Shown here one piece after another: positions 16,898 to 64,000 of a stretch of DNA of 64,000 nucleotides (position 1 is the first letter of the stretch; every line of letters begins with the position of its first letter). A model generated the notes under the pieces. The model was not told the origin of the DNA. It did no database searches and was given only the letters and a program-made list of their open reading frames with translations. The position numbers were made by a program, and so were the translations under genes. Origin of the DNA: Clostridioides sp. ES-S-0010-02 (lineage in GTDB: Bacteria > Bacillota > Clostridia > Peptostreptococcales > Peptostreptococcaceae); contig CP067345.1 in the NCBI GenBank assembly GCA_020641055.1, positions 1,729,317 through 1,793,316 on the forward strand, written 5' to 3'.

Positions 16898-16941
16898 TAT
16901 ACAATACTAATTTTAATGGTACAAAAATTAGTCATTGTATA
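16898..16941. promoter_or_regulatory. Dyad symmetry upstream of the tail cluster (operator or leader hairpin)
   Basis: TATACAATACTAATTTT is mirrored by AAAATTAGTCATTGTATA around a nine-base centre, with a single-base gap. It lies 47 bases before the first cluster gene. No T-run follows, so it is not an obvious terminator and could be a repressor operator or RNA leader element. The surrounding 390-base gap (16598-16987) has no gene. It also holds a weak promoter candidate, TTGCCA at 16802 and TATAAT at 16827 with a 19-base spacer. Confidence 0.5.
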
Positions 16942-16987
16942 CATATATAAAAATAAATATAAGAAGTAAACTTAATAGGGGGGAACA

Positions 16988-17257
16988 ATGTTAAAAAAAA
17001 TTAATTTAGAGAGCTGTTTTAAACATGCTATGGAAAAGGGATATAATTATTTAGGTGTGGTTGTAAAAATAGATGAAAATCACAAGGAGCTAATAGTAAA
17101 TACCAAAAATAATTTTCAAAACAAACTTAAGTATTATAAATTAGCTTATGATGAAAATTTGAATCATAATGTAGCAAATGATATGAGTATAACTGATTTT
17201 ACATATGGAAATACATTAGCAGATATTGAAAGTAAATTACAAAAAAATTTTATATAA
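16988..17257 (+). CDS. Small protein of unknown function, first gene of the tail-like cluster
   Basis: This 89-residue, basic, soluble protein has no family I recognise. It has a very strong ribosome binding site (AGGGGGGAAC) and sits directly after the dyad element. Its position at the head of a long structural operon would fit a regulator or early assembly factor, but nothing in the sequence proves this. It has no clear HTH or membrane segment. Confidence 0.6.
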   Translation: MLKKINLESCFKHAMEKGYNYLGVVVKIDENHKELIVNTKNNFQNKLKYYKLAYDENLNHNVANDMSITDFTYGNTLADIESKLQKNFI

Positions 17258-17298
17258 AACAAAAAATATGCTTTTTAATTTAACAAAGTATATCTTAT

Positions 17299-17438
17299 AG
17301 AGGGTATATTACATAGTGAATAAGCAAATATGACCCCTCAAAAAATCCGCGTAATACCAACAAATCTAAGAATCCCAAATAAGCTTGTTAGCATTTAAAT
17401 AATGCTAACAAGCTTAGATATACTAGTCTAAGATATCT
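17299..17438 (+). other. Candidate structured leader RNA or regulatory DNA
   Basis: This 200-base gap has several nested inverted repeats. The best is a perfect 15-base stem (AAGCTTGTTAGCATT / AATGCTAACAAGCTT, 17381-17415) with a five-base loop and no T-run. Upstream, GAGGGTATATT can pair with AATATGACCCCTC. ATCTAAG at about 17364 could pair with CTTAGAT overlapping the perfect stem. Mutually exclusive pairings of this kind are seen in regulatory leaders. No known riboswitch class is recognisable. Confidence 0.4.
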
Positions 17439-17457
17439 CAACTAAGGAAGGAATAAT

Positions 17458-18429
17458 ATGGATAAAAGTATAAAGGAAGAGAATATATTGAGTTACAATC
17501 CTAATTTAGAAGTAGGGAGATTTGAAAATTTTGAATATACATCAATAGTAAATGAACCTATAACAATTGAGGATTATAAGACTAATATTTTGAAGTCATT
17601 TGAAAAGTATCATCCATCAAAAGTAGTATCAAAATTAAATGAACTTATATCATTAATCAAATCCTATTTGAGTTTGATAGAAAATGATGCATATCAAGGT
17701 AAGATTACAAAGCAGTATTGTTTTTCTATTACAGAATCTGAACAATATGTACTAAAAGAGGAAAATTTTAAAAATTTATATGGAGATTCTAAGTTTGAAA
17801 GTTACTTAGAGATATTAAATATAAAAAACGAATTATTAAATATAAGAAAAATCTTTGTAATGGGGATATACACAACTAAAAAAAATGATTATTTATTTGA
17901 TGATATAGATTCTTCATTTATTAATAAATTGAACCAGTATGAATATGAAAAGAGTAATCATAATATAAATTACTTTTCATTATTTTATGATATTCAAGTT
18001 ACATTTATTTTATTAGAATACTGTAAGAAAATAGAAAAAATAATTAAAGAATTATATTTGATTGAAAATAGAAAAAAAGGACAACCAATAAATTCAGAAA
18101 CACATTTTATTCTAAACAAAAAGTTTAACCTTATAAATAAAACTATGAAAAATGACTTATTTAATGAAAAAAGTATACATGGAAATATAGAGGATTCTTT
18201 ACATAATCTATTTTTAGCTAAACATGATGTAAATACATTTATAAATAATTTTATTAATTTAAGAGATGAATTTAACTTACTTAATGAGATAAAGGAAGAT
18301 AATCTAAATGATGTAGAAATTTGCATTGATGAGTTAATAAATGCTTGCATGATGTCTGTAATTTATAAAAAAGATGTTTATAATTCACTATTGAATAAGT
18401 CAAAGATAAGAGAATTTTTTACTAAATAA
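17458..18429 (+). CDS. Hypothetical protein of the tail-like cluster
   Basis: This 323-residue, Lys/Glu/Asn-rich, predicted helical soluble protein has no recognisable family. It has an AAGGAAGG ribosome binding site and follows the structured leader. It has no signal peptide or membrane segment. By position it belongs to the early part of the cluster; it could be a regulator or assembly factor. Function is unknown. Confidence 0.6.
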   Translation: MDKSIKEENILSYNPNLEVGRFENFEYTSIVNEPITIEDYKTNILKSFEKYHPSKVVSKLNELISLIKSYLSLIENDAYQGKITKQYCFSITESEQYVLKEENFKNLYGDSKFESYLEILNIKNELLNIRKIFVMGIYTTKKNDYLFDDIDSSFINKLNQYEYEKSNHNINYFSLFYDIQVTFILLEYCKKIEKIIKELYLIENRKKGQPINSETHFILNKKFNLINKTMKNDLFNEKSIHGNIEDSLHNLFLAKHDVNTFINNFINLRDEFNLLNEIKEDNLNDVEICIDELINACMMSVIYKKDVYNSLLNKSKIREFFTK

Positions 18430-18495
18430 TTTACAATAGAGAAAAATGGTTGGTATATTCAGAAAATGAAAAGTATTAATAAGGAGGGTGAATAT

Positions 18496-18702
18496 ATGGC
18501 TGTTAAGCAAAAAAATATTAAGAAGAAAGATAAAGAGGAGCTTTACTCAAAAGCAGTAAAAATAAAATGCTGTTATTGTAGTAAAAAAGAAGATTGTTTA
18601 TATCAAGCAAGAAAAGAGTTTAGTGAAAGTATAGGTCATATAACCTATTGTACATTAACTCCAAATATTCCTAAAAAACAACGTAAAAAAATAAAACGTT
18701 AG
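18496..18702 (+). CDS. Small basic Cys-rich protein
   Basis: This 68-residue protein has a Lys-rich N- and C-terminus around a Cys group (CCYCSKKEDC, later YC). This looks like a small metal-binding or nucleic-acid-binding module. An upstream in-frame ATG at 18466 is possible, but AAGGAGGGTG directly precedes the start given here. It lies 16 bases before the holin gene. No family is recognised; a regulatory role is a guess. Confidence 0.6.
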   Translation: MAVKQKNIKKKDKEELYSKAVKIKCCYCSKKEDCLYQARKEFSESIGHITYCTLTPNIPKKQRKKIKR

Positions 18703-18718
18703 TAAAAGGAGAGCATAT

Positions 18719-18931
18719 ATGAAGAACTATTTAAAAAAGAGAGTAGGAAATAGAGGGTTTTGGGTTTCTCTAGCAGCAATGATTCCACTTACAATACAAT
18801 CTTTTGGATATATTGATATACTACCAAAAAATTATTCTGATATAGTAAATTGTCTTTTAGCCTTACTCACAACACTTGGAATATTGAATGACAATTCTAC
18901 TGAAAACAAGTGGTATTTAGATGATAAGTAA
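18719..18931 (+). CDS. Phage holin, phi LC3 family
   Basis: This 70-residue protein has two hydrophobic segments (FWVSLAAMIPLTIQSFGYI and VNCLLALLTTLGIL), separated by a short polar turn, and a charged C-terminus. This is the layout and sequence style of phi LC3-type holins, which permeabilise the membrane for lysis and particle release. AAAGGAGAG precedes the ATG. No endolysin is found next to it or elsewhere in the window. Its presence shows phage ancestry of the cluster. Confidence 0.82.
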   Translation: MKNYLKKRVGNRGFWVSLAAMIPLTIQSFGYIDILPKNYSDIVNCLLALLTTLGILNDNSTENKWYLDDK

Positions 18932-19022
18932 TAGATTTTATTGAATAGCTAACATATTTACATTCTAAAAAAACTTTTCAAAAATATTTATAACAAAAAT
19001 AAAAAATAAAGGAGATAGTATT

Positions 19023-20021
19023 ATGATTTTTAATGATTTGAAGATACCTAGAGGAAGTTCTTTTGACCCAATGCAAGGAGTTAGATCTGTAGATAATATA
19101 GATGGGGATGTCACAGAACTTGTTACAGTTGAAGGTGAAGTCGATGTGAATGCAATTGGGGAATATACTTTGAAATATTCAGCTCCAGATAGATCTGGAA
19201 ATATAACAACAGCAACTAGAATAATAACAGTTATAGATACAGGTGCTCCTGTAATAAGTGGTGCTGATGATAAGACTATAAATTTATTGGAAGAACTAGA
19301 TTTAAAAGCTGGAGTTACAGCAATGGATGATATAGATGGAGATTTAACTGATTCGATAGTTATAGAAGGCTCAGTGGATAATACTATACCTGGAGACAAT
19401 AAGATTGTTTATACTGTGGAAGATAAATCTAAAAATAAAAGTACAGTAAATAGAGTAATAACAGTTGTTGATAATGTAGCTCCTATATTATCTGGTGTTG
19501 AAGATTGTACTGTAGAATATGGCTCATCATTTGATTCAAAAGCTGGGGTTACTGCTAATGACAATATAGATGGAGATTTAACTTCTAAGATAGTAATAGA
19601 AGGAATAGTTAATACTTCTGTTTTAGGAGAACAAACATTAACATATAGAGTTTCAGATGTTGCAAATAACGAAGCAAGTGTTGTGAGAAAAGTTACTGTT
19701 GTTGATACTGTTAAGCCAGTATTTTCAGGCGTAGACAATTTAACATTAAATTTAAATGACACATTCAATGCTTTAGAAGGTGTAACAGCTGTAGATGAAG
19801 TTGATGGAGATTTAACAGATTTAATAACTGTTGAAGGTGGAGATTTAGTTGATACATCTGTTGTAAAAGAATATCAAGTTACTTATAAAGTATCTGATAA
19901 ATCATCAAATGAAGCTGTAGTAGTTAGATTAGTATCTGTAATAGATAATATACCTCCTGTATTAACTGGGGTTGAAGATAAAGAGATAGAAGTAGAGCCA
20001 ATACCTAAAGAAGAAGTTTAA
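19023..20021 (+). CDS. Protein of four to five tandem Ig-like (DUF5011/HYR-type) domains
   Basis: The 332 residues consist almost wholly of repeats of about 75-80 aa with recurring DxxDGDLT, GxYxxTYxVxDxSxN and V(I/V)D...P(V/I) signatures. These are typical of bacterial Ig-like domains of the DUF5011 type found on cell-surface adhesins. No signal peptide, LPXTG motif or membrane anchor is present. Together with its place in a tail gene cluster, this suggests a structural or decoration protein of the particle. It starts mid-domain, as a cluster component rather than a secreted adhesin. AAAGGAGATAG precedes the ATG. Confidence 0.75.
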   Translation: MIFNDLKIPRGSSFDPMQGVRSVDNIDGDVTELVTVEGEVDVNAIGEYTLKYSAPDRSGNITTATRIITVIDTGAPVISGADDKTINLLEELDLKAGVTAMDDIDGDLTDSIVIEGSVDNTIPGDNKIVYTVEDKSKNKSTVNRVITVVDNVAPILSGVEDCTVEYGSSFDSKAGVTANDNIDGDLTSKIVIEGIVNTSVLGEQTLTYRVSDVANNEASVVRKVTVVDTVKPVFSGVDNLTLNLNDTFNALEGVTAVDEVDGDLTDLITVEGGDLVDTSVVKEYQVTYKVSDKSSNEAVVVRLVSVIDNIPPVLTGVEDKEIEVEPIPKEEV

Positions 20022-20046
20022 TAAATGATGTAGTAGAGGTGAAATT

Positions 20047-20667
20047 ATGAGTAACTTTAATGTCACTTATAGTGCTGGTGGAAACATAGATAAAATAAAA
20101 AAAGTTGGAAATATTGAAGAAATAAATAATATAGAAAACATAGAAAAAATAGATAGTCTATCTGAAGTAGAAAACATAGAAACTCTTAAAAACATTGAAA
20201 ATTTAGAGCAAGTCAAAAATGTGGCAAAACTTGAATCTGTTTCTAATATAGAGAACCTTAATGAAGTTAATACAGTCAATGAAATAAAAGAGATAGGTAG
20301 TATAAGGGGATTTGCATCAAAAACACAACCATATAATTATATGAGATTAATAGAAGTTCCAGCACTTAGAGGAGTGTTTGAAGAAGAAATAGTTTTGTCT
20401 CCATCTGAAGTTGAGATTCTTGCTATATCTGTTACATGTAGTGGATATGGAGAAAATGACCACTATAATTTATATTTTAATGAACAATTATGGTTTAAAG
20501 ATTGGTACTTGGGGGAAGTAAAAGAGGGACTTTTCTTAGGTTCATCAACATATGTATATTCAGCACCTCCAAATTCAAGAGTAATTTTAAAATTTCATAA
20601 TGATAGCGGAACTTCTAAAAAATTATGGTTTGGTATAAGAATGTTAAAAGACCCAGAACCAATTTAG
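20047..20667 (+). CDS. Structural protein with period-three hydrophobic repeat and C-terminal beta domain
   Basis: Residues about 14-84 repeat a hydrophobic residue every third position (IEEINNIENIEKI, VENIETLKNIENLEQV and so on). This is not a coiled-coil heptad and suggests a beta-solenoid or fibrous trimer. The remaining 115 residues form a compact beta-rich domain with aromatic residues (WFKDWYLGEV, LWFGIRM). It starts 26 bases after the Ig-repeat gene with GTAGAGGTG as ribosome binding site. I infer a fibrous component of the particle. No named family is recognised. Confidence 0.6.
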   Translation: MSNFNVTYSAGGNIDKIKKVGNIEEINNIENIEKIDSLSEVENIETLKNIENLEQVKNVAKLESVSNIENLNEVNTVNEIKEIGSIRGFASKTQPYNYMRLIEVPALRGVFEEEIVLSPSEVEILAISVTCSGYGENDHYNLYFNEQLWFKDWYLGEVKEGLFLGSSTYVYSAPPNSRVILKFHNDSGTSKKLWFGIRMLKDPEPI

Positions 20668-20688
20668 AGATGGAAAGGAAAATTAAAT

Positions 20689-23277
20689 ATGTTAAGTAAT
20701 GAAATAAAAGACTTTGTCTTCCATGAATTTAAAACAGATGCAGACAGTTTTGTAAAAGATTTAGCAAATGTTTTGGCTTTAGGGAATTATACTAAAGAAG
20801 TAAAAGATGTATCTGGAAACTTAATGAGAAAATCATTACCTTCAAAAGAAGATTGTTGGAATATAGTGTATCCTAACCCAAATTTTAAACTTATAAAAGG
20901 TAGAGAAGTTTCTTCTTTTGATGAGATAAATGCAAGTGAATATGAAATAATAACTAAGGACCAAATTTCTAAAATAACTGATTCTGTTGTGGTGAGAGCT
21001 GTAACAAGACCATCTGATAGAATTACTCAGCAAACAACAAAAGTTGGCTCTGATGAAATTTTAAAATATGGACTTCTGGATAATGATATAGAAGAAAATA
21101 CAGTTATGTATTTGGAAGTGTATTTTCCAAAATATTTATGTGATACAGAATTGGATGACCCTACTCAACAACGAGATGGAAAAACTGTACCAAAAGTTGT
21201 AAATCTAAAAACTGGTGTAAAAGATGCGCAAGCTAGAAACTATCATAACTGCTATATGAGAATTTTTGATAATCCAAATAAGGACTATTCTGGTCCAGCA
21301 GAAAATGTTATAGATATGGTAACTGGTGATATAGCTGAATTTAATTCTGCTTCATCTGAATGGTGTAAATTATCTTGGTTTACAGATTTTGATGAAAAGT
21401 TTAAATCAGAACTTGGTATAACTGGTTCAGATGCTCTTTTAAGAATACCTATTACATCTTCTTTAAATAATAAGACTAAAATAAGAGTACTTGCTAATAT
21501 ACATCCAAATAGAGTGCTTATAAATGTTACAGGTAATCCAAATGTAGATTATGAGGACAATAGATATTTAGTTGGTCAAGCCTATATAGGTTCTATTGAT
21601 AGTTTTGATTTTGCTAAGAAAGACATAACTGGTAATTTTGGTATATTTACAACTTCTTCATCTGTACCTTCTATACCAAAGTTTAATATTAAATATAGTG
21701 AGCCTTTTAATGGAGTCAATACGCTTGGAACTGATGGAGTAAAAACAACTGGAAAAAATGTTATATCAAATGCAGGAGCTAAGTCAGCTTGGGTAAATAT
21801 AGGTACATTTCCTTGGTTAAATAATTCATTATTTAATACTAGACCTGCAGATACAATAGTAAAATATACATATAATAGAAGAGATATTCCAAGAGATTTT
21901 GGTTCAAATATTGCTGGTGGAAAAACAACTATATATGAACCTAGTTTGCAAGTTACAATAGGAGCTTCTGTAAATAATGAATTTGTGGCTGAGTTTGGAT
22001 TAATGAATCCAAATATAAAATATAACTCATATGGAGTATCTTATATTACACCTAATGCAAGAACTTCTATATCAAGAGAAAAAGTTACTTTTCCATCTGA
22101 GCTACCAATAACTATAGATAAACCAATAGTAAAAGACATGACAGTAGAAGTTCAAGTGACTTATAATGAACAAGATTTATATAACTATATTAGAAAGTAT
22201 GTAGCACAAAATGATGGAAAAGAGCTTTTAAATGACCTAAGTTATTATATATATGGAGCACAAGATGGAACAGTTGAAAGACCAATTTATTTTTATCTAG
22301 GTTTTGATGAAGTTGAAGAAAGAACTACTCAAGAAGGTGGTTCGAATAGAGATAAATATGGAAATCTTGTAGATATAAAATACCATCAAACTTATGGTGT
22401 GCATACAGCAAATGGAACAACTGACTTTGCAATGTACAAAACAGACTCTGCTGACTATTTTCAAAGTCACTATTTTATGTTCTCATCAACAGAGCAATTC
22501 ATGAAAAAACATATGTATGGTAAATCAGTATATACAAACGAATACTTTGCAGATAGGATAAAAATTGTCCATAGTGCAGAAGGTGTTCGTGGAGCTTTAT
22601 CAGGTATGATAGTGATAGATGCTGAATCACTTTTCCCATTTGATGAATTAATAGTAAACAAATCTTTTGAAAAATATGAAGATAAACCAGAAGAAACATA
22701 TATATACCTTCCATTAACTACACCTTATACTCCTTTTGCAAATTCTCCAAATGAAAGATATGGTGTTGGAGTATTAAAAGAGCTTAAATATAATGAAAGC
22801 AATGATGATTCTAGATGTGAAACTGCATTAAGAGAAATACAAGATATGTATAAAGATATCTATTCTTGTACAAATAATGCTGAATCAGTTTATTTTGCTG
22901 ATAAAACAGACAATGGATTAGAGATAACATGGCATTCTTCTGATACGAATATAGTAAGTTTTTCTAAAGGAGCAGATGTTGAAGAACCTACAATAGAATT
23001 AAAAATATCTCCTGAAAATCCAATTTTAAAAGTTGGAGAAAAAAAAGTTCTTTCTTTACTTGAAGGAGAAGAAATAGTAGAGGATGATAACATAATTTGG
23101 ATTTCATCAAATGAAAATATAGTTACTGTTTCTCAAAAAGGAGAATTGACAGGGATTAAAATAGGTGGGGCAGTTATAACTGCTAGATATAAAAGTAGAA
23201 AAGTTCAAACTGAAGTAAATGTAAATTCTACAGATGAATTGGATGAATCAAATTCACAAGAAGACCCTGTTATATAA
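20689..23277 (+). CDS. Large structural protein with C-terminal Ig-like (BIG_2) domain
   Basis: This is an 862-residue protein. The first 720 residues are beta-rich and unlike any family I can name. Near residues 720-758 it has the first half of an atrophied Ig (aBig) domain ending ITWHSSDTNIVS. From about 765 a BIG_2 domain follows (VGEKKVLSLLEGE, IIWISSNENIVTVSQKGELTG). The next gene begins with what looks like the second half of the aBig domain, so this C-terminus appears rearranged. No signal peptide is present. By position it is a virion-type structural protein. Confidence 0.65.
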   Translation: MLSNEIKDFVFHEFKTDADSFVKDLANVLALGNYTKEVKDVSGNLMRKSLPSKEDCWNIVYPNPNFKLIKGREVSSFDEINASEYEIITKDQISKITDSVVVRAVTRPSDRITQQTTKVGSDEILKYGLLDNDIEENTVMYLEVYFPKYLCDTELDDPTQQRDGKTVPKVVNLKTGVKDAQARNYHNCYMRIFDNPNKDYSGPAENVIDMVTGDIAEFNSASSEWCKLSWFTDFDEKFKSELGITGSDALLRIPITSSLNNKTKIRVLANIHPNRVLINVTGNPNVDYEDNRYLVGQAYIGSIDSFDFAKKDITGNFGIFTTSSSVPSIPKFNIKYSEPFNGVNTLGTDGVKTTGKNVISNAGAKSAWVNIGTFPWLNNSLFNTRPADTIVKYTYNRRDIPRDFGSNIAGGKTTIYEPSLQVTIGASVNNEFVAEFGLMNPNIKYNSYGVSYITPNARTSISREKVTFPSELPITIDKPIVKDMTVEVQVTYNEQDLYNYIRKYVAQNDGKELLNDLSYYIYGAQDGTVERPIYFYLGFDEVEERTTQEGGSNRDKYGNLVDIKYHQTYGVHTANGTTDFAMYKTDSADYFQSHYFMFSSTEQFMKKHMYGKSVYTNEYFADRIKIVHSAEGVRGALSGMIVIDAESLFPFDELIVNKSFEKYEDKPEETYIYLPLTTPYTPFANSPNERYGVGVLKELKYNESNDDSRCETALREIQDMYKDIYSCTNNAESVYFADKTDNGLEITWHSSDTNIVSFSKGADVEEPTIELKISPENPILKVGEKKVLSLLEGEEIVEDDNIIWISSNENIVTVSQKGELTGIKIGGAVITARYKSRKVQTEVNVNSTDELDESNSQEDPVI

Positions 23278-23309
23278 AATATAATGAGAAATAGAAAGGA
23301 TGAATATTA

Positions 23310-24368
23310 ATGTTAGGTATAATTAATAGACCAGATTTCTATGAAGGAGATAAAGAAGTATACTTATCTGCTACTGTAAAGTCTGGAGAAGTCTCTAAAA
23401 CTAAAAAATTTAAGGTACTTGTAAAAGCATCGAAGCGAACTGATTTACAAAGTGTACTAGAGGATATAGGAAACATATCTATACCAAATATAGTCACAGA
23501 AAATCTGACTTTTATACAAAAAGGTAGTTGTGGTTCAACTATAGTATGGTCATCTTCTAGTCCAAATATAATAGGTCAATTAGGAAAAGTAACAAGACCT
23601 GTATTTGGTGAACAAGATGCAAAAGTTACTATAAACGTTATTGTGTCAAAGGGAAGTGTAAGTAGAAGTAAAGAATTTAAAGTTACAGTACCAGCATGGA
23701 CTCAAGAAGGTGAAGTTGAATCTGCTGCTAATGCAATAACTTGGGAACTTATTAGAAATAAAAATACTGATATAAATAAGGTTACAAGTGATTTAGTACT
23801 TCCAACAACTATAGGAAATGAAATATCAATAACATGGACTACAAGTAATTCTACATGCTTGAGTGATAAAGGGGTAGTTACTAGACCAGCATATAAAGAT
23901 GGTGATAGTATCGTATCTGTTACAGCAACACTTACTAAAGGTGAACTTATATCTACAAAAACTATAACTAATATTAGAATACTTAAGCAAGAGCCTACTA
24001 ATCAAGAGAAGGTTGATGATTTTGTAAAAACTTTTGACTTTGTTTCATATATTGCACCAAATAAATCATTAACAGAACTTAGTGATAACTTTACATTGCC
24101 TGCTAAAGTTGAAAATATGTCATTGACTTTCTCGGCACTTGATAATGAAGGTGAAGACTTAACATCAACAAATATAAAATTAGAACTTGATAATCAGGCT
24201 CTTTCTTATAAAGCCACAATAGTGAGACCTAGTTCTAGCATTGGTGATTTTAGTTTTAATTTAAAAATTGAAGCTAAAATTACTGTCTTGTCAGAAGGAG
24301 AAACATCAGAAGAAATTAAGGCTTCTAAGATATATCCAGCTAAAATATTAGCTATGATTGAAGAATAG
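23310..24368 (+). CDS. Tandem atrophied Ig-like (aBig) domain protein
   Basis: This 352-residue protein starts abruptly in the second half of an Ig domain (LGIINRPDFYEGDKEVYLSA). It continues with two clear aBig repeats (VWSSSSPNIIGQLGKVTRP and ITWTTSN...GVVTRPAYKDGD) and a more diverged third. Such domains are stalk modules of extracellular proteins. Its N-terminus completes the half domain at the end of the preceding gene, so the two were probably once one polypeptide. AAAGGATG precedes the ATG. The next gene starts immediately after the stop codon. Confidence 0.7.
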   Translation: MLGIINRPDFYEGDKEVYLSATVKSGEVSKTKKFKVLVKASKRTDLQSVLEDIGNISIPNIVTENLTFIQKGSCGSTIVWSSSSPNIIGQLGKVTRPVFGEQDAKVTINVIVSKGSVSRSKEFKVTVPAWTQEGEVESAANAITWELIRNKNTDINKVTSDLVLPTTIGNEISITWTTSNSTCLSDKGVVTRPAYKDGDSIVSVTATLTKGELISTKTITNIRILKQEPTNQEKVDDFVKTFDFVSYIAPNKSLTELSDNFTLPAKVENMSLTFSALDNEGEDLTSTNIKLELDNQALSYKATIVRPSSSIGDFSFNLKIEAKITVLSEGETSEEIKASKIYPAKILAMIEE

Positions 24369-27263: not shown

Positions 27264-27309
27264 AAATTATTTAAAATACTATCAAAGATAATCGAAGGGA
27301 AGAAATGTT

Positions 27310-28597: not shown

Positions 28598-28610
28598 GGT
28601 GGTATGGTAG

Positions 28611-29132: not shown

Positions 29133-29146
29133 AGTGAGGTGATGAT

Positions 29147-48333: not shown

Positions 48334-48334
48334 T

Positions 48335-53449: not shown

Positions 53450-53489
53450 TTCATATAGGAAGTTTAACCTAGAGTGGGAGGTAATTAAT

Positions 53490-54672: not shown

Positions 54673-55468
54673 AAATTTTGAATCTCTGGTTAAAGAAACG
54701 GAAGTCGAACTAAATAAAATTGGATTTGACACAAGCCCTGGTTCTATAGCCAAACTTTTTTCTGATATAATAAATAAAAATATATCAGAATTTTATGATG
54801 TACTTACAATGAGCCATCTTCAAGCTTTTGTGACTACTGCTACTGGTAGGTTTTTAAATGCTATAGGTATATTAGTAGGATGCAAGAGATTATTTGAAGA
54901 ATCAGATGAAGATTATAGAAAAAGAATTACTCATCAAACACTAACTTTGGCTAAAGCAAATGAAACTTCAATAAGATTAGCTGTCTTAAGTATCAAAGGT
55001 GTAAAAGATGTAATATTAAAAAGATACTCTCATGGACCAGGTAGTATGACTATTGTGCCAATAACTGAAAATATAAAAGATGAAGATTTACTTTTGAATG
55101 TAAGAGAAGCATTATTAGATATAACATCATTTGGAGAAAAGGTCATAGTAAAGTTGCCTAATTTTAAATATGTAAAGCTAAATGTAGGGTTGGTATTTTC
55201 TTCATATATAGGCGAAATAGAAAAACAAGCTATAAGAGTATCTGTAAGAGAAGAAATCATAAGCTATATAAATTCTATAAACATAGGAGAATCACTATTT
55301 ATAAATGAATTGACACAGAGAATAATGCAAGTCAGTGATTCTATACTAAATTATTCTTGTAATAGTATTAAGATAAACAATAAAAATTGTTTGTTAATTA
55401 ATCAGGAGTGCAGATGGGATGAAAAATTTATCGTATCTCCAGATGGGGATTCTGTAGTAATTATATAG
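54653..55468 (+). CDS. Baseplate J-like wedge protein (gp6/gp47 family)
   Basis: This 271-residue protein shows the baseplate J pattern: an N-terminal helix bundle (DTSPGSIAKLFSDIINKNISEFY), RRLFEESDEDYRKRI-like spacing (CKRLFEESDEDYRKRITHQ), SIKGVKDVILKRYSHGPGSM and terminal strands. These proteins form the wedge that triggers sheath contraction. AGTGGGGTGA precedes the ATG, and the start overlaps the gp25-like gene. Shorter than many J proteins but complete in pattern. Confidence 0.82.
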   Translation: MILIHNKNFESLVKETEVELNKIGFDTSPGSIAKLFSDIINKNISEFYDVLTMSHLQAFVTTATGRFLNAIGILVGCKRLFEESDEDYRKRITHQTLTLAKANETSIRLAVLSIKGVKDVILKRYSHGPGSMTIVPITENIKDEDLLLNVREALLDITSFGEKVIVKLPNFKYVKLNVGLVFSSYIGEIEKQAIRVSVREEIISYINSINIGESLFINELTQRIMQVSDSILNYSCNSIKINNKNCLLINQECRWDEKFIVSPDGDSVVII

Positions 55469-55476
55469 GGGACATA

Positions 55477-56151
55477 ATGACTGAAAACATATATTTGGAA
55501 TTAATAAAGAGTGTTGTAGCAGTTACAACTGCAATTATCACTGTAGTTGGAGCTTGCTTAGGTAGAAAAAAATATAAAAAAAAGAATAAAGAACAATATA
55601 AAGCTATAAATAATCAATTAATGTTATATTCGCATCCAATATTTAAAAAAATAGAACTAAATAAAAATATTATAAAAATACATTTTACACTCGAGAATAA
55701 GGGAAAAGAAGCTGTTTTTAGAGAAATATTGATTAATCATATGGATATATTTAAGGTTCATGCTTTAAAACTATGTAAAAAAGTGGACTCTGGAAAGATA
55801 GTAGATACAGATGAATTATATACAGAAAGTGTTTATACATTAAATAATATTATTGCCGATTTGAAAAGTTTTTATAATGATAATAATCGTTATTCGCAAG
55901 AAGAAGTAAATGTACTTGATATAGTGATGGATAAGTATAATCATTGGAATTCAGATAGACAGCATGAAATAGTTGCTAGGATTCAAGAAATTTGTGTATC
56001 TGCTTTTTATCCAGATATATACAATAAGTCTATAACGGTATTTGATACATTTCTGTTTGTTATGAATGACATTATGTTTGATGCAAATAAAACATTAAAT
56101 AATTTAAATGGAGACTTAGTAGGGCTAAAATTTAGAGGAGTGATTATCTAA
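55477..56151 (+). CDS. Membrane-anchored protein within the baseplate operon
   Basis: In this 224-residue protein an N-terminal hydrophobic helix (about residues 9-29, SVVAVTTAIITVVGACLG) is followed by a strongly basic stretch, so the rest probably faces the cytoplasm. The C-terminal domain (LMLYSHPIFKKIELNKNIIKI, EIVARIQEICVSAFYPDIYN) is helical and unlike any family I can name. It is nine bases after the J-like gene and directly adjoins the next gene. A structural part with a membrane helix is unusual; assembly at the membrane or self-protection are possibilities. Confidence 0.6.
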   Translation: MTENIYLELIKSVVAVTTAIITVVGACLGRKKYKKKNKEQYKAINNQLMLYSHPIFKKIELNKNIIKIHFTLENKGKEAVFREILINHMDIFKVHALKLCKKVDSGKIVDTDELYTESVYTLNNIIADLKSFYNDNNRYSQEEVNVLDIVMDKYNHWNSDRQHEIVARIQEICVSAFYPDIYNKSITVFDTFLFVMNDIMFDANKTLNNLNGDLVGLKFRGVII

Positions 56152-57270
56152 ATGCAAGAAAGCGATTTTGCAAGATATACAGAAAAAATAAGGTCAATGC
56201 TTCCCTTTTGGTTTGAAATGAAGAAAAAACCCAATAAGTCTATTGGGATTGAGTTTTTAAATATATTTGGTATAGAGTTGGATGAAATAGAAGAAATGCT
56301 ACTTTATGCTTCAAAACAAATGTATATTGAATCAGCAGATGAAGAGTTTGTTGATTTGGTATATAAAGCTTTACTACCAAGTAACTTTAATATAAATAAT
56401 ATTTCTATGGTGTATACAAATCAACTCATACTTGAAAGAAGTTGTGATTTGTATACTTTTTTTGGAATAAAGAGAAATGAAAAAAATTTAGAAAATAACA
56501 TAAAGCAGCCAGATTATTATTTTATTGATGAAAAGAAGAAAATAATTTATGTTAGAGAGGCATACGATAAAGAAGAAGATTTACCTTTTGGTAAAATAAA
56601 AATAAAGTTTAATAATAAAGAATTTTTATTTGAGCTAAGTCTACATCATGTATGGAACTTTTTTGATGAATTTGGTTCTTTAGTAGGATGCTCTAGGCTT
56701 AAAGGTGAGAAGAATCATGATTATAAATTGAGAATTCTTGATGTCTTTAAAAATCCAGCTAATTCAACAAAGCGAGGTCTTGCTAATGGAATTGCAAGAG
56801 AGCTTGGAATTAGAGAAGTAAAAGAATGGAAGAATATGGGCGAAGATTTTATTATATCTGAAAAGATGGTATTGATAAATACTATATCAATAGATAACAA
56901 TATAATAGACTTAAATGATGTCTATATCACTTCTAGAGGAGAAATTCTTTTAAAGGGAAATCCTGATAAAAAAAATCAATCAGCAGTTATTTCTTTTATA
57001 AAAAATCTTGAAATGTATCAACTAGTGGATATAAATAATAAAAAATTAAATATAGAATTGTATAATTCAGATGCAACTCCAACAAGTCTATTAATTGATT
57101 ATGTAACAAAGATAAAAGATGATACTTCAACTTTCTGGAATGATTTTAGATATGATGAAGATATTTGGGTAAGAAAAGATGAAGATTATGATAATAGTTT
57201 TTCATTTTTACCAACGTTTCTTGATTCCAGTATAAAAGGTTTTTCAAAATATGGATATTATAAAAAGTAG
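56152..57270 (+). CDS. Baseplate/tail protein following J (wedge-like)
   Basis: This 372-residue soluble protein starts with helices (ARYTEKIRSMLPFWFEM) and a central block (FGSLVGCSRLKGEKNHDYKLRILDVFKNPANSTKRGLANGIAREL) that echoes baseplate proteins with a J-like EExDxYRxRI segment. Position after the J-like gene suggests a second wedge protein. The start codon directly follows the previous stop codon. No known family is assigned with certainty. Confidence 0.6.
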   Translation: MQESDFARYTEKIRSMLPFWFEMKKKPNKSIGIEFLNIFGIELDEIEEMLLYASKQMYIESADEEFVDLVYKALLPSNFNINNISMVYTNQLILERSCDLYTFFGIKRNEKNLENNIKQPDYYFIDEKKKIIYVREAYDKEEDLPFGKIKIKFNNKEFLFELSLHHVWNFFDEFGSLVGCSRLKGEKNHDYKLRILDVFKNPANSTKRGLANGIARELGIREVKEWKNMGEDFIISEKMVLINTISIDNNIIDLNDVYITSRGEILLKGNPDKKNQSAVISFIKNLEMYQLVDINNKKLNIELYNSDATPTSLLIDYVTKIKDDTSTFWNDFRYDEDIWVRKDEDYDNSFSFLPTFLDSSIKGFSKYGYYKK

Positions 57271-57285
57271 ATTGGGGGTGAAAAA

Positions 57286-60200
57286 ATGGATTTGAACTTT
57301 GAAATTAAACTTATTATAGAGAATACTGAAATAAATAAGTTGATAACCTTTAATAAACATATAATTAAAAAAAATCTAAAGCTATACCCACACGAAGAAC
57401 TTGAAGTTGATTCAAAAGAAATAACCAAGTATTTTGCTAAAGAGTTAGATAGATATAGTATTGAAAATAATATACATATAAGTAAATTAATGGTTGATGG
57501 ATATGAAATAGAGTCGTTAACAGAGGGTGTATATATTTTTTTTAAAACAGAAAATACAGAATTATTCTCGCTATCTCCATCTATAGTTGCCGTATTGGAA
57601 GAAGAAAAAAATGTAATTATAAAAGAAAATAAAGTGCTAAGCTATACTAAGTTTAAATTGCCAGAAAGAGTGGAAATAGTTCCATATATGAATATTAACA
57701 TAGCAAGTAGAATGAAAGCATTTCAGTCTGGGATAGGAGATTATAATGATTGTAAGTTATATAAATCAGAAGATACTACATATAAAAAGACATTTAAACT
57801 ACTAAATAAAATATATGGAATAAGAGCAAGTAACAAGGTAAAATATAACACTATAAAATTTTATTATAGATATAAGATGGAAGCTAAAACTAATTACATT
57901 ACTTATGATTCTAAAGTAAGTATTAGAGTAAGTGCAAGAGAGGTATCCCAAATTAGAGAAAAAATTGAAGGAGAACCATTTGGGCCAACATATAAATCTG
58001 AACTAGATTTAGACTATGTATTTGATGAGCATACTCAAGTAGCAGATATTTATTTATATAGTTTGATACCAGAATTAAAAAATAAAGATTATTCAAAGAG
58101 ATATAAATTTGATATAGAAGTTTACAATATAAAAGGACCAGTAAGAATATATTCATATACACATGGATATAGGGATTTTTTAGAAGACAATAAAGCTGAT
58201 GACAACGTTAAATTTAGTGAATATGGTTATTTTGACCATAAAGTGTGTATAAAAGCTGTAGAAGTTATAAGACAAAAAGAATATATTGAAATATTTCCAC
58301 CACTAGAATATGATTCGCTTGTTGGAGCCATAAATGGAGATTTTGAAGTATCAGAAAATGGAAAGAAGGATATGGTAGATACAGCTCCAGTTTTTGAAGC
58401 TTCTCTTGATGTCTATGATAGAAAATATTATTGTATAATAGAAAAATTTAGTCCAGAAGAAGCATATGTTTTATATGAGTTTGATAATCAAGTAGATGAA
58501 GAAGACTATACATTAATTAATGGAGACAAAATAAAATTTTATTCTGATTCTATAATTTCCGATTCAACTGAGTATAAGGAATTTTTAGGACAAGTTGATA
58601 GAGGAGAGTTCATAATTGATGATAATAGAAAGCATACCTATGTTTATGGTCTTACAGAATTTAGTTTAAATTCAAATGAATATAAAAGGTTTGAGCTTGT
58701 AGTAGAAGCTAGTATAAGTGATGTGATGATTTTAGATTATCCAAAAGTGCTTACTATAAGATATGGATATATTGATGATATTATAATTGTATCCTTGAGA
58801 ACATTACAAAATGCTTTAGCACGTTGGTGTCCAAGTATACATAATGGATATTATTATTATAATCAAGATGAGTATTATTTATATAATAAATGTAATATGA
58901 ATGGTCAAGAAAAAATATTACAGGATACCTTTAATAAATTTAGAATACTAATTAAGATTACTTTGAATGTATCAGAGCCAACAGGGCAATTTGAAAGGTA
59001 TGATATTAGAAAATTTAATAAAAAAGACTTATTACTGGATAGTTCAAAATTTGTATATAAAGATAATATGTTATGGCCAAAACCAATAAAATACTATAAC
59101 GATTATTATTACGATTTTCTGGAAGAATATATTTATGAAACAACACCTTTTTTATTTAACAAAAAACCTACATCCATTCAAGAAATATCATGGATACAAA
59201 AATCCAATGAATTTAGTACTGTAGATGTATTTTATGTAGGTCATAATGATATTTATGGAGAATGGATGCAACCAGTTAAATTGATTTATGGAGAGCCCAT
59301 TCCTTTAAATTTAATATTGTGTAAAGTTTTTAAATTAAGGTTTATACTTAAACCTTCTAAAATGCCCAAACTACAACATAGAGAGTTAATTTATGAATGT
59401 GAATCTGATTGGAGAAACTTTATTGATTCTTTCCTTAGTTTTAATTTTTATTATAGAGAAGAAGTATTGATGCCGTTATCGGATAATTCCATATCAATAT
59501 CAATAACTAACATAATTGATTTAGGGGATACAATAGAAACCACAGAGAATTTAAAATATATAATGCCATCAATGAAGTTTGATGGAGAAGTAGAATTTTA
59601 TGTACAAGATGACAATGTATTGCTTAATTTAGAAGGAAAACTAAATTCAGATAAATGGATTCAAGTAGAAAATAATACCAAGATTGAAACTAAAAGATTT
59701 GTGAGATTTAAAATTGTTTTAAAAGAGGGAGCAAAACTATATAGTTTAAACCTAAAAGTTGGAAGATATGAGTATACAGGAATGAATTTAGAGACTTTTT
59801 TACCCTCAATAGGGGATATAAAAGTTAAAGCCACTTACAATTCTACAGAATACTCATCTAAATATGAAAATATAATATCTTATAATCTACCGTATGATAC
59901 TCAACCATATACAATTATAAAAAATATTGAAGAATATGCAGAAACAGTTGCAAAAGCTAATAATTTTAAACTAGAAAATATAAAAAGTATAAAATTTACT
60001 AAGGTAGATGTATATTCTGAAGAATATAATATTTTATATGATGGAGATGATAAAGTAACTAAAAAACCAGTAAAAGCACAATCATTATATTTATCTGAAA
60101 GTGATTTTATAGTAGAATCAGAGCAAGATGGAATAATATTTAAAGTTCCTTACACTAAAACAATAAGAATGTCTCCAATACCACAACAATATTCACCTAT

Positions 60201-60966
60201 TATCATATATGAAATTGGAATAGAAGAACCATATACTCAAGTATTTTTTTTGAGTGAAACAGGAGAATATTCACTTGAAAGTGAAGAAAAATTTGAATCT
60301 CTTGGGTTTAAAACTTTATACTTACAAAACATAGATATAGATGAGACAACAATAGTGATTACAATAAATGAGGTATTAATGAAGGACTATACTATTGAAA
60401 ATAATGTTATAGTTTTTGAAAAAGAGGTTCCTAAAGGAAAGATAATAAATGTTAGATACAAGATTAAGAACTCTTTTATAGCTTTGTATGACTATGAAAA
60501 AGATGAAGTTGAAATAAAATTACATAAATTTGAAGAAAAGTATCCAAATAAAGTGAAGGTCTATTTTGAAACTCATAAAACATCTTCACTAAAAGAATTA
60601 AAGCATATATCACTAAATCCAATCTACAATACCCTATACAATGGATATATATACATATCAGATTATACCTTAGAACCATACTTTTTAAGGATATATTTAG
60701 AAACCAACTTTGTGTTTGCAAATGGAAAAGATGATATAAGCATCTTAATATCAGTAACAGATGTGTATAATAATCCAGTTGAAGGTGCTTTTGTAAATAT
60801 AGAATCTGCTCTTGGAACAATTGAAAAATTAAATGATAGAACTGATATTAATGGAATAATTCCATGTATTTATACAAGTTGGACAGGAGATTGTATAGAT
60901 GTTATAAAGGCAATTGCTAATGAAAATGCTAAAGATGAAATCACTATAGTAAATAGAAAAATATAG
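57286..60966 (+). CDS. Very large structural protein with C-terminal Big_1 Ig domain
   Basis: This 1226-residue protein, mostly beta-rich, has no signal peptide. The last 80 residues form an invasin-type Ig (Big_1) domain (DISILISVTDVYNNPVEGAFVNIESALGTI...TDINGIIPCIYTS). A beta module with VLMKDYTIENNVIVFEKEVPKGKIINVRYKIK sits before it and recalls the repeats in the large sheath. It could be a baseplate fibre or tail spike. GGGGGTG precedes the ATG. Family unknown. Confidence 0.6.
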   Translation: MDLNFEIKLIIENTEINKLITFNKHIIKKNLKLYPHEELEVDSKEITKYFAKELDRYSIENNIHISKLMVDGYEIESLTEGVYIFFKTENTELFSLSPSIVAVLEEEKNVIIKENKVLSYTKFKLPERVEIVPYMNINIASRMKAFQSGIGDYNDCKLYKSEDTTYKKTFKLLNKIYGIRASNKVKYNTIKFYYRYKMEAKTNYITYDSKVSIRVSAREVSQIREKIEGEPFGPTYKSELDLDYVFDEHTQVADIYLYSLIPELKNKDYSKRYKFDIEVYNIKGPVRIYSYTHGYRDFLEDNKADDNVKFSEYGYFDHKVCIKAVEVIRQKEYIEIFPPLEYDSLVGAINGDFEVSENGKKDMVDTAPVFEASLDVYDRKYYCIIEKFSPEEAYVLYEFDNQVDEEDYTLINGDKIKFYSDSIISDSTEYKEFLGQVDRGEFIIDDNRKHTYVYGLTEFSLNSNEYKRFELVVEASISDVMILDYPKVLTIRYGYIDDIIIVSLRTLQNALARWCPSIHNGYYYYNQDEYYLYNKCNMNGQEKILQDTFNKFRILIKITLNVSEPTGQFERYDIRKFNKKDLLLDSSKFVYKDNMLWPKPIKYYNDYYYDFLEEYIYETTPFLFNKKPTSIQEISWIQKSNEFSTVDVFYVGHNDIYGEWMQPVKLIYGEPIPLNLILCKVFKLRFILKPSKMPKLQHRELIYECESDWRNFIDSFLSFNFYYREEVLMPLSDNSISISITNIIDLGDTIETTENLKYIMPSMKFDGEVEFYVQDDNVLLNLEGKLNSDKWIQVENNTKIETKRFVRFKIVLKEGAKLYSLNLKVGRYEYTGMNLETFLPSIGDIKVKATYNSTEYSSKYENIISYNLPYDTQPYTIIKNIEEYAETVAKANNFKLENIKSIKFTKVDVYSEEYNILYDGDDKVTKKPVKAQSLYLSESDFIVESEQDGIIFKVPYTKTIRMSPIPQQYSPIIIYEIGIEEPYTQVFFLSETGEYSLESEEKFESLGFKTLYLQNIDIDETTIVITINEVLMKDYTIENNVIVFEKEVPKGKIINVRYKIKNSFIALYDYEKDEVEIKLHKFEEKYPNKVKVYFETHKTSSLKELKHISLNPIYNTLYNGYIYISDYTLEPYFLRIYLETNFVFANGKDDISILISVTDVYNNPVEGAFVNIESALGTIEKLNDRTDINGIIPCIYTSWTGDCIDVIKAIANENAKDEITIVNRKI

Positions 60967-60991
60967 ATAAGCTACAAAAGGGGTATGTTTT

Positions 60992-63900
60992 ATGGATATT
61001 AATAAGTTGAAAACATTAAATTATAAGATAACAAATGGGTCTAATCTTCAAGGCGTTATTTTAATAAAAGAAGGAAACATAAATTCTCTAGGAGAAGCAT
61101 ATAGAAAAGGTTCTATTGAAGAAGAAACTTTTTTAAAATTATCAGGAAATGTTAATTTTAGTATTTTAAATAATATAATATATTTTAATTATTATGCAAA
61201 TGATTTATATATTGGAGAAGACTCTTTTGATTTTATTGTGACATTAGAAAATGGAATGACATACATTCAAACAATAGGTATTTTAATTGAACAAAAAATA
61301 GTGAGTGTAAATACAAAAGAAAGATTTATAGAAATATATTTTGATAATGAACAAGATAATAGAGTAGCTGTAAATATATCAAGTAATATTAACCAATCTA
61401 TAGAATTACCAACGACAATAGTTTATAGTTCAACTGATAAAGAATTTAATATTGATAAATGTGTTGAAACTAATGATGCTATAAATAATTTTAGTGAAAT
61501 AGCGTATCCTTTATATGATTGTAAGGTTGAGATAGTAACTAAAGCTACTAATGAAACCGTAAATAATGGGGCAAGTATAAAAGTCGTTAATAACGCAAAT
61601 ATATCATTTATAAAGAGTAAGAAATTTTTAGGTGATGAATACGGGAAAATTGTATTTAAAAACTTTGTAAATAGAGAATATAATATTGATTCACCTACAA
61701 AAGAAATTGTTTATATAGTTTGGCATGCAAGAACAATTGTAACTGAATATAAACCCAAAGATGATATTATAGTAAGTCAAAGACCTGATGTAAGTATACC
61801 TAATTTCAAGTTACCTATTATGGACTATCCACAAGCACCAAAAGATGAATCTATTTTAGAAAAAGAAGAATATGTATCTGGAGATTTATTTTCTAATACA
61901 AAAGTACATAAAGAATTTGATAATAAAGGAAATAAATCTATTAAACTTGGAAGAAATGTTCCAAATGGAGCAGTAAATTTAGCTTATTATTATAATACAA
62001 CAGCCTCACTAGATGATACTGTTTCTGTAATAGAGACTAATACAAATAATGTAACATTGCATTTTGTTGAAGATTGGATTCACAGAAGAGATTTAGCTAC
62101 AAAAAATGATGATTACTTTCCAGAAACTATTGAATTTACTGGTGAAAAAGGCACAGAATTAGAAGGGTATTGGGGTGTTTTATATAGAGATTTTGTTATG
62201 TGGGATGAATCTACAGTTACTGATTTTAAACCAGAGCATAAAGTTCAACATGAGGAATTTAAAGGTCTATTAGCTAAAAGAGTGCCTATAGACAAGATAT
62301 ACAATGATGGTGATAAGTATGGTGTTTTAAATTTGACAAACTCTATATTTGAAGCTGTAAGCTTTGTGGAAACTGAGAATGAACTTATTGATTATAATCC
62401 TAAAACTTATAATGCATATACACGATATGAAGGTTTGGTTAGAAAGTTAAAAGTATTGTATAATGGGTCAGCTAAATATAGTGGTGTTGTAAATAAAAAA
62501 GATGAAATATCAAATATACATCCAGAACAGGAAAGAGAAATAATAATGTATCCAGATGAAAGTGGTCTTTTACATAGAATTGATGGAGAGTATTTGATAG
62601 ATGACGATTTATTTTATATTACAAATAAATTTAAGGACAACATACCACTGTATTACAGATATAAGTTAAAGTATAAAATTTATGATAATGTCGGATTAGA
62701 TATAAATGGTTTGTATAATTCAGAAAATATAAATATCGTTTCAGAAAATAATTATCCAATAGATGAAAATGAGTTTAAGTACAAGGTCTTTATAGAAAAA
62801 ACTAAATATGAAAATGTCTATGATGCATATCTATATACATCATTTGTACCAACTGTAGAAAATCCTATATATGTTATGTATGATGGATTGACAGAAGAAG
62901 CTTATGGAAAAGATAGTGTAAATCCTTTAGAAACTAAAGCAGGTATACTTGAAAAGATAAGTCCAATTCAATGTTGCGATTTAGATTCATATAGAGTAAA
63001 TAGGTTTCAAGATATAACAAATAAGTCTTCTATAGAGGTATTTGAATATGAAATATTGGAAGACAAAAGAAGTAAAATACAAATTGAATACATTATAATG
63101 GCGGATGAGTTAGAAATAGCTCCTATTACAAAGGAAATAATAAATAAAAAATATGCGTTATACTCAGAACTTGCTAGTTTTAAGAATGAGGACATGATTA
63201 TATCTGAAAAGGATACAAATGGATATATGACAGCAAGAGAGATGTTTATGAAGTACTCATCAGTTGAAGACAGAGATAAAATAAATGAAAACTCAACTTT
63301 TAGAGTTAAATATAATCTTCAAAATTTAGATACTATGTATTCAAAAGATAAGACTTTGATATATACAGCATCAGATGGAAATGGATTTATATATGGAAGA
63401 ACATATGAAGATACTGGATTTCCAGAACAAGATTCAACTACTCTTGGAGATATTAAAAATACTAATATGTTAGATAAAGATTCTATATATAAATCAGCGA
63501 ATGGAAAAGTTTATAAAGGATATTCAGTAGTGTGTAGAAATATAAATCAAATTGTTGTGGGAACTCCTCTAGAAAAAGAGCCCCTAAAAGGTTGGTTTCC
63601 AACTATTAAATATGCTTATTTTAGTAAAAAATATGAAAGAATCGATAAAACAATAGAAATTATATATTCCATACCAGAATATGATTTACAGATATTTGGA
63701 AAGTATGGCAAACCATATATTGACATATCTGGAGAAAAAGGAAGTTTTGTTGGAAATAGTACTATTAAGGTAAAAAATACTCCAATGTATATAGAAGTTG
63801 ATAATAGCTGGAAGCCAACTAATTTAAAAGTTTATAAAATGTTAAATGATAAAGATAAAAAAGAACTTGAAATAAAAGGATTTAATTTTAAGTATGGATT

Positions 63901-64000
63901 TATAGAGATTAATGATTCAGTAAGTGATAATGATAAGATATTAGTAGATTATACTTATGAAGAAAAGAATCTTCATTACAGAGGCTATTATAAAAACCAA
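60992..64000 (+). CDS. Very large structural protein, 3' end beyond the window
   Basis: The frame is open from an ATG with AAAAGGGG upstream to the last base, 1003 codons. The product begins MDINKLKTLNYKITNGSNLQ and is beta-rich throughout, with no signal peptide. Near the visible end an IKVKNTPMYIEVDNSW...KILVDYTYEE segment resembles the small beta modules of the large sheath and of the previous gene. It is likely a further fibre or baseplate-associated protein. The C-terminus and family are unknown. Confidence 0.6.
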   Translation, partial: MDINKLKTLNYKITNGSNLQGVILIKEGNINSLGEAYRKGSIEEETFLKLSGNVNFSILNNIIYFNYYANDLYIGEDSFDFIVTLENGMTYIQTIGILIEQKIVSVNTKERFIEIYFDNEQDNRVAVNISSNINQSIELPTTIVYSSTDKEFNIDKCVETNDAINNFSEIAYPLYDCKVEIVTKATNETVNNGASIKVVNNANISFIKSKKFLGDEYGKIVFKNFVNREYNIDSPTKEIVYIVWHARTIVTEYKPKDDIIVSQRPDVSIPNFKLPIMDYPQAPKDESILEKEEYVSGDLFSNTKVHKEFDNKGNKSIKLGRNVPNGAVNLAYYYNTTASLDDTVSVIETNTNNVTLHFVEDWIHRRDLATKNDDYFPETIEFTGEKGTELEGYWGVLYRDFVMWDESTVTDFKPEHKVQHEEFKGLLAKRVPIDKIYNDGDKYGVLNLTNSIFEAVSFVETENELIDYNPKTYNAYTRYEGLVRKLKVLYNGSAKYSGVVNKKDEISNIHPEQEREIIMYPDESGLLHRIDGEYLIDDDLFYITNKFKDNIPLYYRYKLKYKIYDNVGLDINGLYNSENINIVSENNYPIDENEFKYKVFIEKTKYENVYDAYLYTSFVPTVENPIYVMYDGLTEEAYGKDSVNPLETKAGILEKISPIQCCDLDSYRVNRFQDITNKSSIEVFEYEILEDKRSKIQIEYIIMADELEIAPITKEIINKKYALYSELASFKNEDMIISEKDTNGYMTAREMFMKYSSVEDRDKINENSTFRVKYNLQNLDTMYSKDKTLIYTASDGNGFIYGRTYEDTGFPEQDSTTLGDIKNTNMLDKDSIYKSANGKVYKGYSVVCRNINQIVVGTPLEKEPLKGWFPTIKYAYFSKKYERIDKTIEIIYSIPEYDLQIFGKYGKPYIDISGEKGSFVGNSTIKVKNTPMYIEVDNSWKPTNLKVYKMLNDKDKKELEIKGFNFKYGFIEINDSVSDNDKILVDYTYEEKNLHYRGYYKNQ

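What the first reader, a model, noticed from the sequence alone, without database searches (positions are those of the whole stretch)
16898..64000. Large contractile tail-like gene cluster without capsid or packaging genes in view
About 47 kb of same-strand, tightly packed or overlapping genes encode sheath, tube, hub, spike, gp25-like and J-like proteins plus many fibre and Ig-domain proteins. It begins right after chromosomal genes closed by a strong terminator. No terminase, portal, capsid, integrase or replication gene is visible. The gene content is much larger than a typical R-type bacteriocin such as the diffocins. It may be a new type of contractile particle in Clostridia, or the tail half of a large prophage.
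Basis: partly seen in the sequence, partly recalled or inferred. Interest (0 to 1): 0.85.

Follow-up and report, generated by a model that had tools for sequence, protein, structure and literature searches.

The report
Headless giant-phage tail in Clostridioides
Some Clostridioides (C. difficile group) chromosomes carry a long-kept, head-less contractile tail machine that descends from giant phages, probably a weapon against rival bacteria, whose proposed length-setting proteins have shrunk almost to nothing.

Summary
The cluster is real and runs 17.6 kb past the window: 48 same-strand ORFs, 16,988 to 81,641, in an island of about 66 kb. The genus is Clostridioides. It is collinear with the tail and baseplate arm of large phages of the Bacillus phage 0305phi8-36 type (Moorella phage MTATph1, 200-kb Bacillus/Paenibacillus phage-plasmids, IMG/VR contigs) and keeps a regulator of that lineage. 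Terminase, portal, protease, scaffold, capsid and endolysin are missing from it; capsid and portal profiles found nothing in 8 Clostridioides genomes (6 of 6 controls hit). Four of eight genomes carry it at one locus, on both sides of the deepest split, under purifying selection; a fifth keeps a deletion scar. So it looks domesticated, neither active nor decaying. Unexpected: the two giant proteins between tail chaperones and hub, one in the position of the assigned tape measure, are gone. One survives as a ~60-residue C-terminus fused to a chaperone (well supported), the other perhaps as the end of a 122-aa protein (suggestive only). Best reading: a tailocin-like killing particle with exchangeable fibres and an eroded ruler. 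One paper had listed a 0305phi8-36-like 'cryptic prophage' in a C. difficile isolate. Particle and function are unproven.

The parts
16988..64000 (+). Part of the island inside the window; the ORF run goes on to 81,641 in window numbering (last genes: 78,494 structural, 79,989, 80,388, sigma-like 80,730)
17458..18429 (+). Relative of the gene that follows the terminase in the phages (weak)
   Evidence: phrog_38749 E 3e-12; G394 gene 12 E 9e-5
18466..18702 (+). Small Cys-rich protein kept from the phage left arm
   Evidence: 60-62% identity to G394/G396 genes
18719..18931 (+). Holin
   Evidence: phrog_297 E 3e-9; PF04531 24.2 bits, cut-off 22
19023..28597 (+). Ig-like and other structural proteins; 20,047, 20,689, 23,310, 24,369 and 27,506 have phage counterparts in the same order
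28611..40495 (+). Fibre array with laminin-G and discoidin-type domains; four related genes (32,911-40,495) and an exchanged first slot (29,147)
40679..42214 (+). Second sheath-like protein
   Evidence: phrog_279 E 6e-23; 32-35% identity to G394/G396
42219..42824 (+). Neck/terminator-position protein
   Evidence: phrog_20284 E 9e-37
42897..45203 (+). Tail sheath, 768 aa
   Evidence: phrog_16991 E 8e-207; 42-47% identity to G396/G394
45253..47823 (+). Three tube-position genes
   Evidence: PF18906 Phage_tube_2 E 0.007, below cut-off
47845..48333 (+). Tail chaperone 1
   Evidence: 55% identity over 110 aa to G394/G396
48335..49405 (+). Tail chaperone 2 (aa 6-158) fused through a poorly conserved linker to the C-terminus of phage giant 1
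49398..49766 (+). 122-aa protein in the position of phage giant 2 (assigned tape measure); its end may be the giant 2 C-terminus (suggestive)
49805..53449 (+). Shrunken baseplate hub, 1214 aa against 1876-1923 aa
   Evidence: hhalign E 3e-98
53490..57270 (+). Baseplate genes (spike position, wedge, J-like, wedge) with one inserted gene, 55,477, from the phage right arm
57286..64000 (+). Large baseplate proteins 57,286-60,966 (joins parts of a 359-aa and a 4110-aa phage protein) and 60,992-64,669

Best explanation
The island is a domesticated, head-less contractile particle, a tailocin-like device, made from the tail arm of a 0305phi8-36-type giant phage. Shown: collinear descent, absence of head and packaging genes, shared locus and vertical-looking inheritance, purifying selection, absence of the two giant proteins next to the hub, and exchange in the fibre array. 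Inferred: under a cluster-encoded sigma-like regulator, baseplate, tube and sheath assemble; the particle is freed through the holin and some wall hydrolase from elsewhere; variable fibres dock on related bacteria; sheath contraction drives the tube through the envelope and kills. Also inferred: with the ruler reduced to stubs, the tube is either very short (122 residues at about 0.15 nm each, a recalled rule, is about 18 nm) or its length is set in another way.
For: 35 of 48 ORFs match phage contigs G394 or G396, collinear from 18,466 to 79,723 apart from four genes of the right arm. Capsid and portal profiles: 6 of 6 controls, 0 of 8 Clostridioides; terminase 0 of 3 Clostridioides, 13 of 17 other records. 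Same locus in G000, G007, G002 and right half in G006; joined flanks in the four others; scar in G005. dN/dS 0.04-0.52 over the 48 ORFs, G000 against G007. G+C 26% beside 28% in the flanks and 37-46% in the phages. Fibre slot exchanged. Ruler stubs.
Against: No endolysin recognised in the island, and no exact GAACNNNNGTTC (recalled SOS box) in the window or L005. No particle, expression or killing data. Known tailocins, as far as I recall, keep a tape measure, so loss of it could mean that no tail is built. The 122-aa stub is only suggestive and its reverse search failed. Which giant is the ruler rests on PMC2147016 for a phage not held here. One or more losses (G005, and G001, G003, G004 if they ever had it) show that the island is dispensable.
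Confidence: 0.6

Rival explanations
1. A defective (cryptic) prophage kept by chance and on its way out, as a 2023 paper named a similar element.
For: No head genes or endolysin; absent in 4 of 8 genomes, one with a deletion scar; PMC10778935 calls a similar element cryptic (passages).
Against: ORFs open across four genomes (internal stops counted only at alternative starts, gene ends or a contig end) and dN/dS well below 1 in each of the 48 ORFs; tidy fusions rather than fragments.
Confidence: 0.15
2. An extracellular contractile injection system that delivers an effector to bacterial or other cells.
For: Contractile parts without capsid, many fibres, domesticated state.
Against: No AAA+ ATPase matched in the 45 of 48 ORFs scanned with Pfam; no effector-like ORF recognised; ancestry is a phage tail rather than an eCIS; a holin is present.
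Confidence: 0.12
3. A host-borne tail supply that packages or is used by another phage or satellite with its own head.
For: Neck-position genes 40,679 and 42,219 are kept.
Against: No capsid, portal (0 of 8) or terminase (0 of 3) relative in the Clostridioides genomes searched; an unrelated head type was not excluded. A long tape measure is missing.
Confidence: 0.04

Closest known systems
Bacillus phage 0305phi8-36 lineage (with BtI1/BwK1; here MTATph1, KLEB27-3, pBL141-2, P. rhizovicinus plasmid, IMG/VR contigs G394-G400)
   Same: Tail and baseplate gene order, two-gene tail chaperone, large hub, two sheath-like genes, right-arm regulator (PMC2147016)
   Different: No head, packaging or endolysin genes; giant proteins before the hub gone; hub and baseplate giants shrunken; sits in the chromosome at a fixed locus
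Diffocins, the R-type tailocins of C. difficile
   Same: Same genus, contractile tail without head, expected to act on related bacteria
   Different: PF04984 finds sheaths in 8 of 8 genomes at other loci, including 351-358 aa ORFs of diffocin size (size recalled), but not the 768-aa sheath of the island; the island is far larger and lacks a long tape measure, whereas diffocin has one (PMC13324602, passages)
X particles of C. saccharoperbutylacetonicum N1-4
   Same: Giant head-less contractile tails, said to be coded by an extrachromosomal element like the Bacillus phages (PMC10538166 section 8.3)
   Different: Extrachromosomal and about 450 nm long; the sequence was not compared (no Clostridium plasmid among the hits)
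0305phi8-36-like 'cryptic prophage' of C. difficile isolate DSS202
   Same: Probably the same kind of element; said to lack TerL and LysM (PMC10778935, passages)
   Different: Only named there; in the passages seen no gene map, conservation or function is given; sequence not compared here

Membership tests
R-type tailocin (phage tail-like bacteriocin) | Sheath, tube and baseplate genes present | tested here: met
R-type tailocin (phage tail-like bacteriocin) | No capsid, portal or terminase | tested here: met
   none in the island; profiles 0 of 8 (capsid, portal) and query 0 of 3 (terminase) in Clostridioides
R-type tailocin (phage tail-like bacteriocin) | Tape measure protein of tail length | tested here: not met
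   4.6 kb between sheath and hub; giants reduced to stubs
R-type tailocin (phage tail-like bacteriocin) | Lysis genes for release | tested here: inconclusive
   holin found, endolysin not recognised
R-type tailocin (phage tail-like bacteriocin) | Kills related bacteria as a particle | not testable with these tools
   needs microscopy and killing assays
Extracellular contractile injection system | AAA+ ATPase in the cluster | tested here: not met
   no match in 45 of 48 ORFs scanned with Pfam
0305phi8-36-type phage or prophage | Collinear tail and baseplate genes | tested here: met
   35 of 48 ORFs
0305phi8-36-type phage or prophage | Terminase, portal and capsid genes | tested here: not met
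0305phi8-36-type phage or prophage | Long tape measure before the hub | tested here: not met
   a giant 2 profile gave 0 of 8 but hit only 3 of 6 controls
Integrated prophage | Integrase or attachment repeats at the island ends | tested here: not met
   longest shared word of the two ends is 11 bases, shuffled mean 11.3; no integrase match in the family scans made of the island

The most novel reading that the evidence does not exclude
A selected contractile nanomachine that works without a tape-measure ruler: domestication cut the ruler and its giant neighbour down to short hub-side ends, giving either a near-tubeless, baseplate-dominated puncturing device or a tail whose length is set in a new way.
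Probability: 0.35. Interest if true: 0.85.

Novelty: new variant of a known kind. Interest (0 to 1): 0.62.

Why it matters
The host-kept phage tails known in this genus are the diffocins, which come from a different and smaller kind of phage. This would be a second, independent capture, from a giant-phage lineage, and it appears to predate the split of the genus. Because its proposed ruler proteins are nearly gone while sheath, tube and baseplate genes are conserved, it offers a natural test of how contractile tails set their length, and a set of exchangeable binding fibres in the C. difficile group.

Tried and rejected
Active prophage: rejected (no head genes, no attachment repeat, shared locus, empty sites). 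A profile search of PDB sequences gave one chance-like match for the tube and a weak Afp3 sheath match, E 0.34, for the sheath. SOS box: no exact match. Sheath relatives in phage and plasmid records: none above 33% identity. Relatives in family (71 genomes) and order (393 drawn): besides the genus only one genome, a MAG. Giant 2 as a whole-protein profile: too weak a probe (3 of 6 controls). Giant 1 and 2 against PDB sequences: no convincing match. Rows dropped: MTATph1 giant 2 was left out of the C-terminus set because its end differs, and G399 giant 2 because the fetched stretch cut it. Full-text searches; in what I saw of them there is no account of this island beyond PMC10778935. Of PMC10778935, PMC13324602, PMC10993401 and PMC1817643 I saw passages; of PMC10538166 passages and section 8.3; of PMC2147016 the abstract, sections 8, 9 and 14, and passages.
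Full report
Where it is. The window lies at 1,729,317-1,793,316 of a single-contig genome of 4.26 Mb. The genus set held eight genomes. I did not establish whether the window's own genome is C. difficile in the strict sense.

Extent. Past 64,000 the same-strand run goes on to 81,641: 48 of 48 ORFs kept by a greedy caller are on the + strand, 97% coding. A PadR gene, a 144-aa ORF and then chromosomal genes follow. No tRNA lies in the window, and the two ends share no repeat longer than shuffles give.

What the genes are. Sheath (phrog_16991, E 8e-207), a second sheath-like protein, three tube-position genes, two tail chaperones, hub, wedge and J-like baseplate genes, large baseplate proteins, and a fibre array with laminin-G and discoidin-type domains. 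At the left is a holin; near the right end is a regulator with a sigma-70 region 4 match below Pfam's cut-off (E 4e-4).

Ancestry. The sheath finds two phage records, MTATph1 and KLEB27-3, and nine Bacillus, Paenibacillus and Cytobacillus plasmids of 200-240 kb. The four records opened have a terminase upstream, three with an annotated capsid gene; the fourth has a relative of one. IMG/VR gave 58 loci, the best four at 43-47% identity. Against two of those contigs, G394 and G396, 35 of 48 cluster ORFs match at E<=1e-3. They run in the same order from 18,466 to 79,723, except four genes that in the phages sit on the other strand in the right arm: 55,477, 79,989, 80,388 and the sigma-like 80,730. 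ORFs 16,988, 17,458 and, weakly, 27,310 find counterparts with profiles (E 3e-5, 9e-5 and 0.004). The order is that described for Bacillus phage 0305phi8-36: two-gene chaperonin orf143/144, one gene, tape measure orf146, hub orf147 (PMC2147016). Its tail measures 486 x 26 nm (PMC1817643). That genome is not held here, so the link rests on gene order and relatives.

What is missing. G394 has terminase, portal, protease, scaffold-position and capsid genes related to those of MTATph1, KLEB27-3 or pBL141-2; G396 has a portal and an amidase-type endolysin. None is in the island. Capsid and portal profiles each hit 6 of 6 control records and 0 of 8 Clostridioides genomes. A terminase query hit 0 of 3 Clostridioides genomes and 13 of the 17 other records.

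The ruler. In the phages two giant proteins lie between chaperone 2 and hub: giant 1 of 1863-2073 aa (10 proteins) and giant 2 of 2288-3258 aa (8 proteins; MTATph1 has 1309 aa). In the island 4.6 kb separate sheath and hub. Of 66 sheath loci, some of them duplicates, 56 have at least 6 kb after the sheath match, and only the two Clostridioides loci show a hub match inside the locus. The end of giant 1 survives as the end of ORF 48,335: a profile of the last 65 residues of ten phage proteins ranks it first of 1514 six-frame ORFs at E 9e-6 (next 0.22), hhalign gives 94% (next of 54: 7%), and 0 of 1000 shuffles reach it. In reverse, the first hit among 5970 phage ORFs is the giant 1 end of G394, at E 0.07. 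Giant 2, in the tape-measure position, may survive as the end of the 122-aa ORF 49,398: first of 1514 but only at E 0.94 (next 0.97), second of 54 by hhalign (2.7%), first of 199 ORF ends by pairwise score, 3 of 1000 shuffles reach it, and the reverse search fails. I call this suggestive. PMC2147016 could align only the last 60 residues of orf146 with its relatives, and calls a long tail an evolutionarily stable property of the lineage; the island departs from that. A giant 1 profile hit 6 of 6 controls and 0 of 8 Clostridioides genomes; the giant 2 profile hit 3 of 6 and 0 of 8, a weak negative. The hub fell from 1876-1923 to 1214 aa, and 57,286 joins parts of a 359-aa and a 4110-aa protein. 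From 40,679 to 79,723 the island codes for 12,726 aa against 20,298 aa for G394 genes 41-70.

Domesticated or decaying. The island is complete and syntenic in G007; in G002 it is there from the left flank to the contig end in the hub gene, in G006 from the fibres to the right flank. In G001, G003, G004 and G005 the flanking genes are adjacent. G005 keeps short pieces of both ends (window 16,408-16,655, 16,908-16,958 and from 82,606), so it lost the island by deletion; the other three show no such trace. A one-gene tree puts G000 and G005 on one side and the other six on the other, with carriers on both sides, and dS of island genes is like that of flanking genes. This fits presence before the split and later losses, though one gene is little evidence. 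dN/dS between G000 and G007 runs from 0.04 to 0.52 over the 48 ORFs; 48,335 gives 0.25-0.27 and 49,398 gives 0.24-0.34 in three comparisons. Internal stops were counted only at alternative starts, gene ends or a contig end. G+C is 26% beside 28% in the flanks and 37-46% in four phage stretches.

Fibres. The 29,147 slot holds 1248 aa here, 785 aa in G007 matching the last 778 at 72%, and ORFs without a match at E<=1e-5 in G002 and in the partial G006. The four genes that follow are 70-86% identical between species; the other island ORFs are 77-99% in G007. This is expected of receptor-binding parts.

Mechanism. I judge a tailocin-like killer most likely (0.6 together with its ancestry). Assembly, release, binding and killing are inferred. 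Against it: no endolysin recognised, no exact SOS box, no particle data, and no long tape measure. If the ruler is really gone, the tube is very short or set in another way; that is open. The genus also carries other contractile sheaths, found by PF04984 at other places in 8 of 8 genomes.

Known before. PMC10778935, on 166 environmental C. difficile isolates, lists a 0305phi8-36-like element in isolate DSS202 and calls it cryptic for lack of TerL and LysM (passages). PMC10538166 describes giant head-less X particles in C. saccharoperbutylacetonicum (section 8.3). In what I saw of the searches named in Tried and rejected there is no account of gene content, conservation or ruler loss for this island.

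Noticed in passing
Giant 2 proteins of the phage relatives, e.g. L022:32582-39448 (residue 1851): 6 of 8 giant 2 proteins carry a D.DGD motif after an R.P-type stretch, like the catalytic loop of RNA polymerase beta' (recalled), and 5 of 8 an exonuclease-like FD.E motif near the N-terminus (RNase_H_2 E 0.0017). PDB sequences gave no support. They may be ejected enzymes as well as, or instead of, a ruler.
   Followed up: partly
G397:C1:170712-171704 and G400:C1:107112-108098: The capsid match in these two phage contigs is crossed by one in-frame TAA.
   Followed up: no
G402:C1:99253-101718 and G409:C147:81455-84011: The terminase match is split in two pieces about 1 kb or less apart, as if interrupted by an insertion.
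   Followed up: no
17381-17415: Perfect inverted repeat upstream of ORF 17,458, without a run of T.
   Followed up: no
L058; L035-L037 (Clostridium sp. MAG SUG825, G069): The only other family member with a sheath relative (25-27% identity); it also has a terminase match in two pieces, so probably a phage of this lineage.
   Followed up: partly
46690-47823: Tube-position gene that looks like two phage genes joined, with a weak peptidoglycan-binding match (PF01471, below cut-off) between them.
   Followed up: no
81701-82778 (window numbering, in L005): A PadR regulator and a 144-aa ORF lie inside the island limits but have no phage counterpart found; they may be host additions.
   Followed up: no
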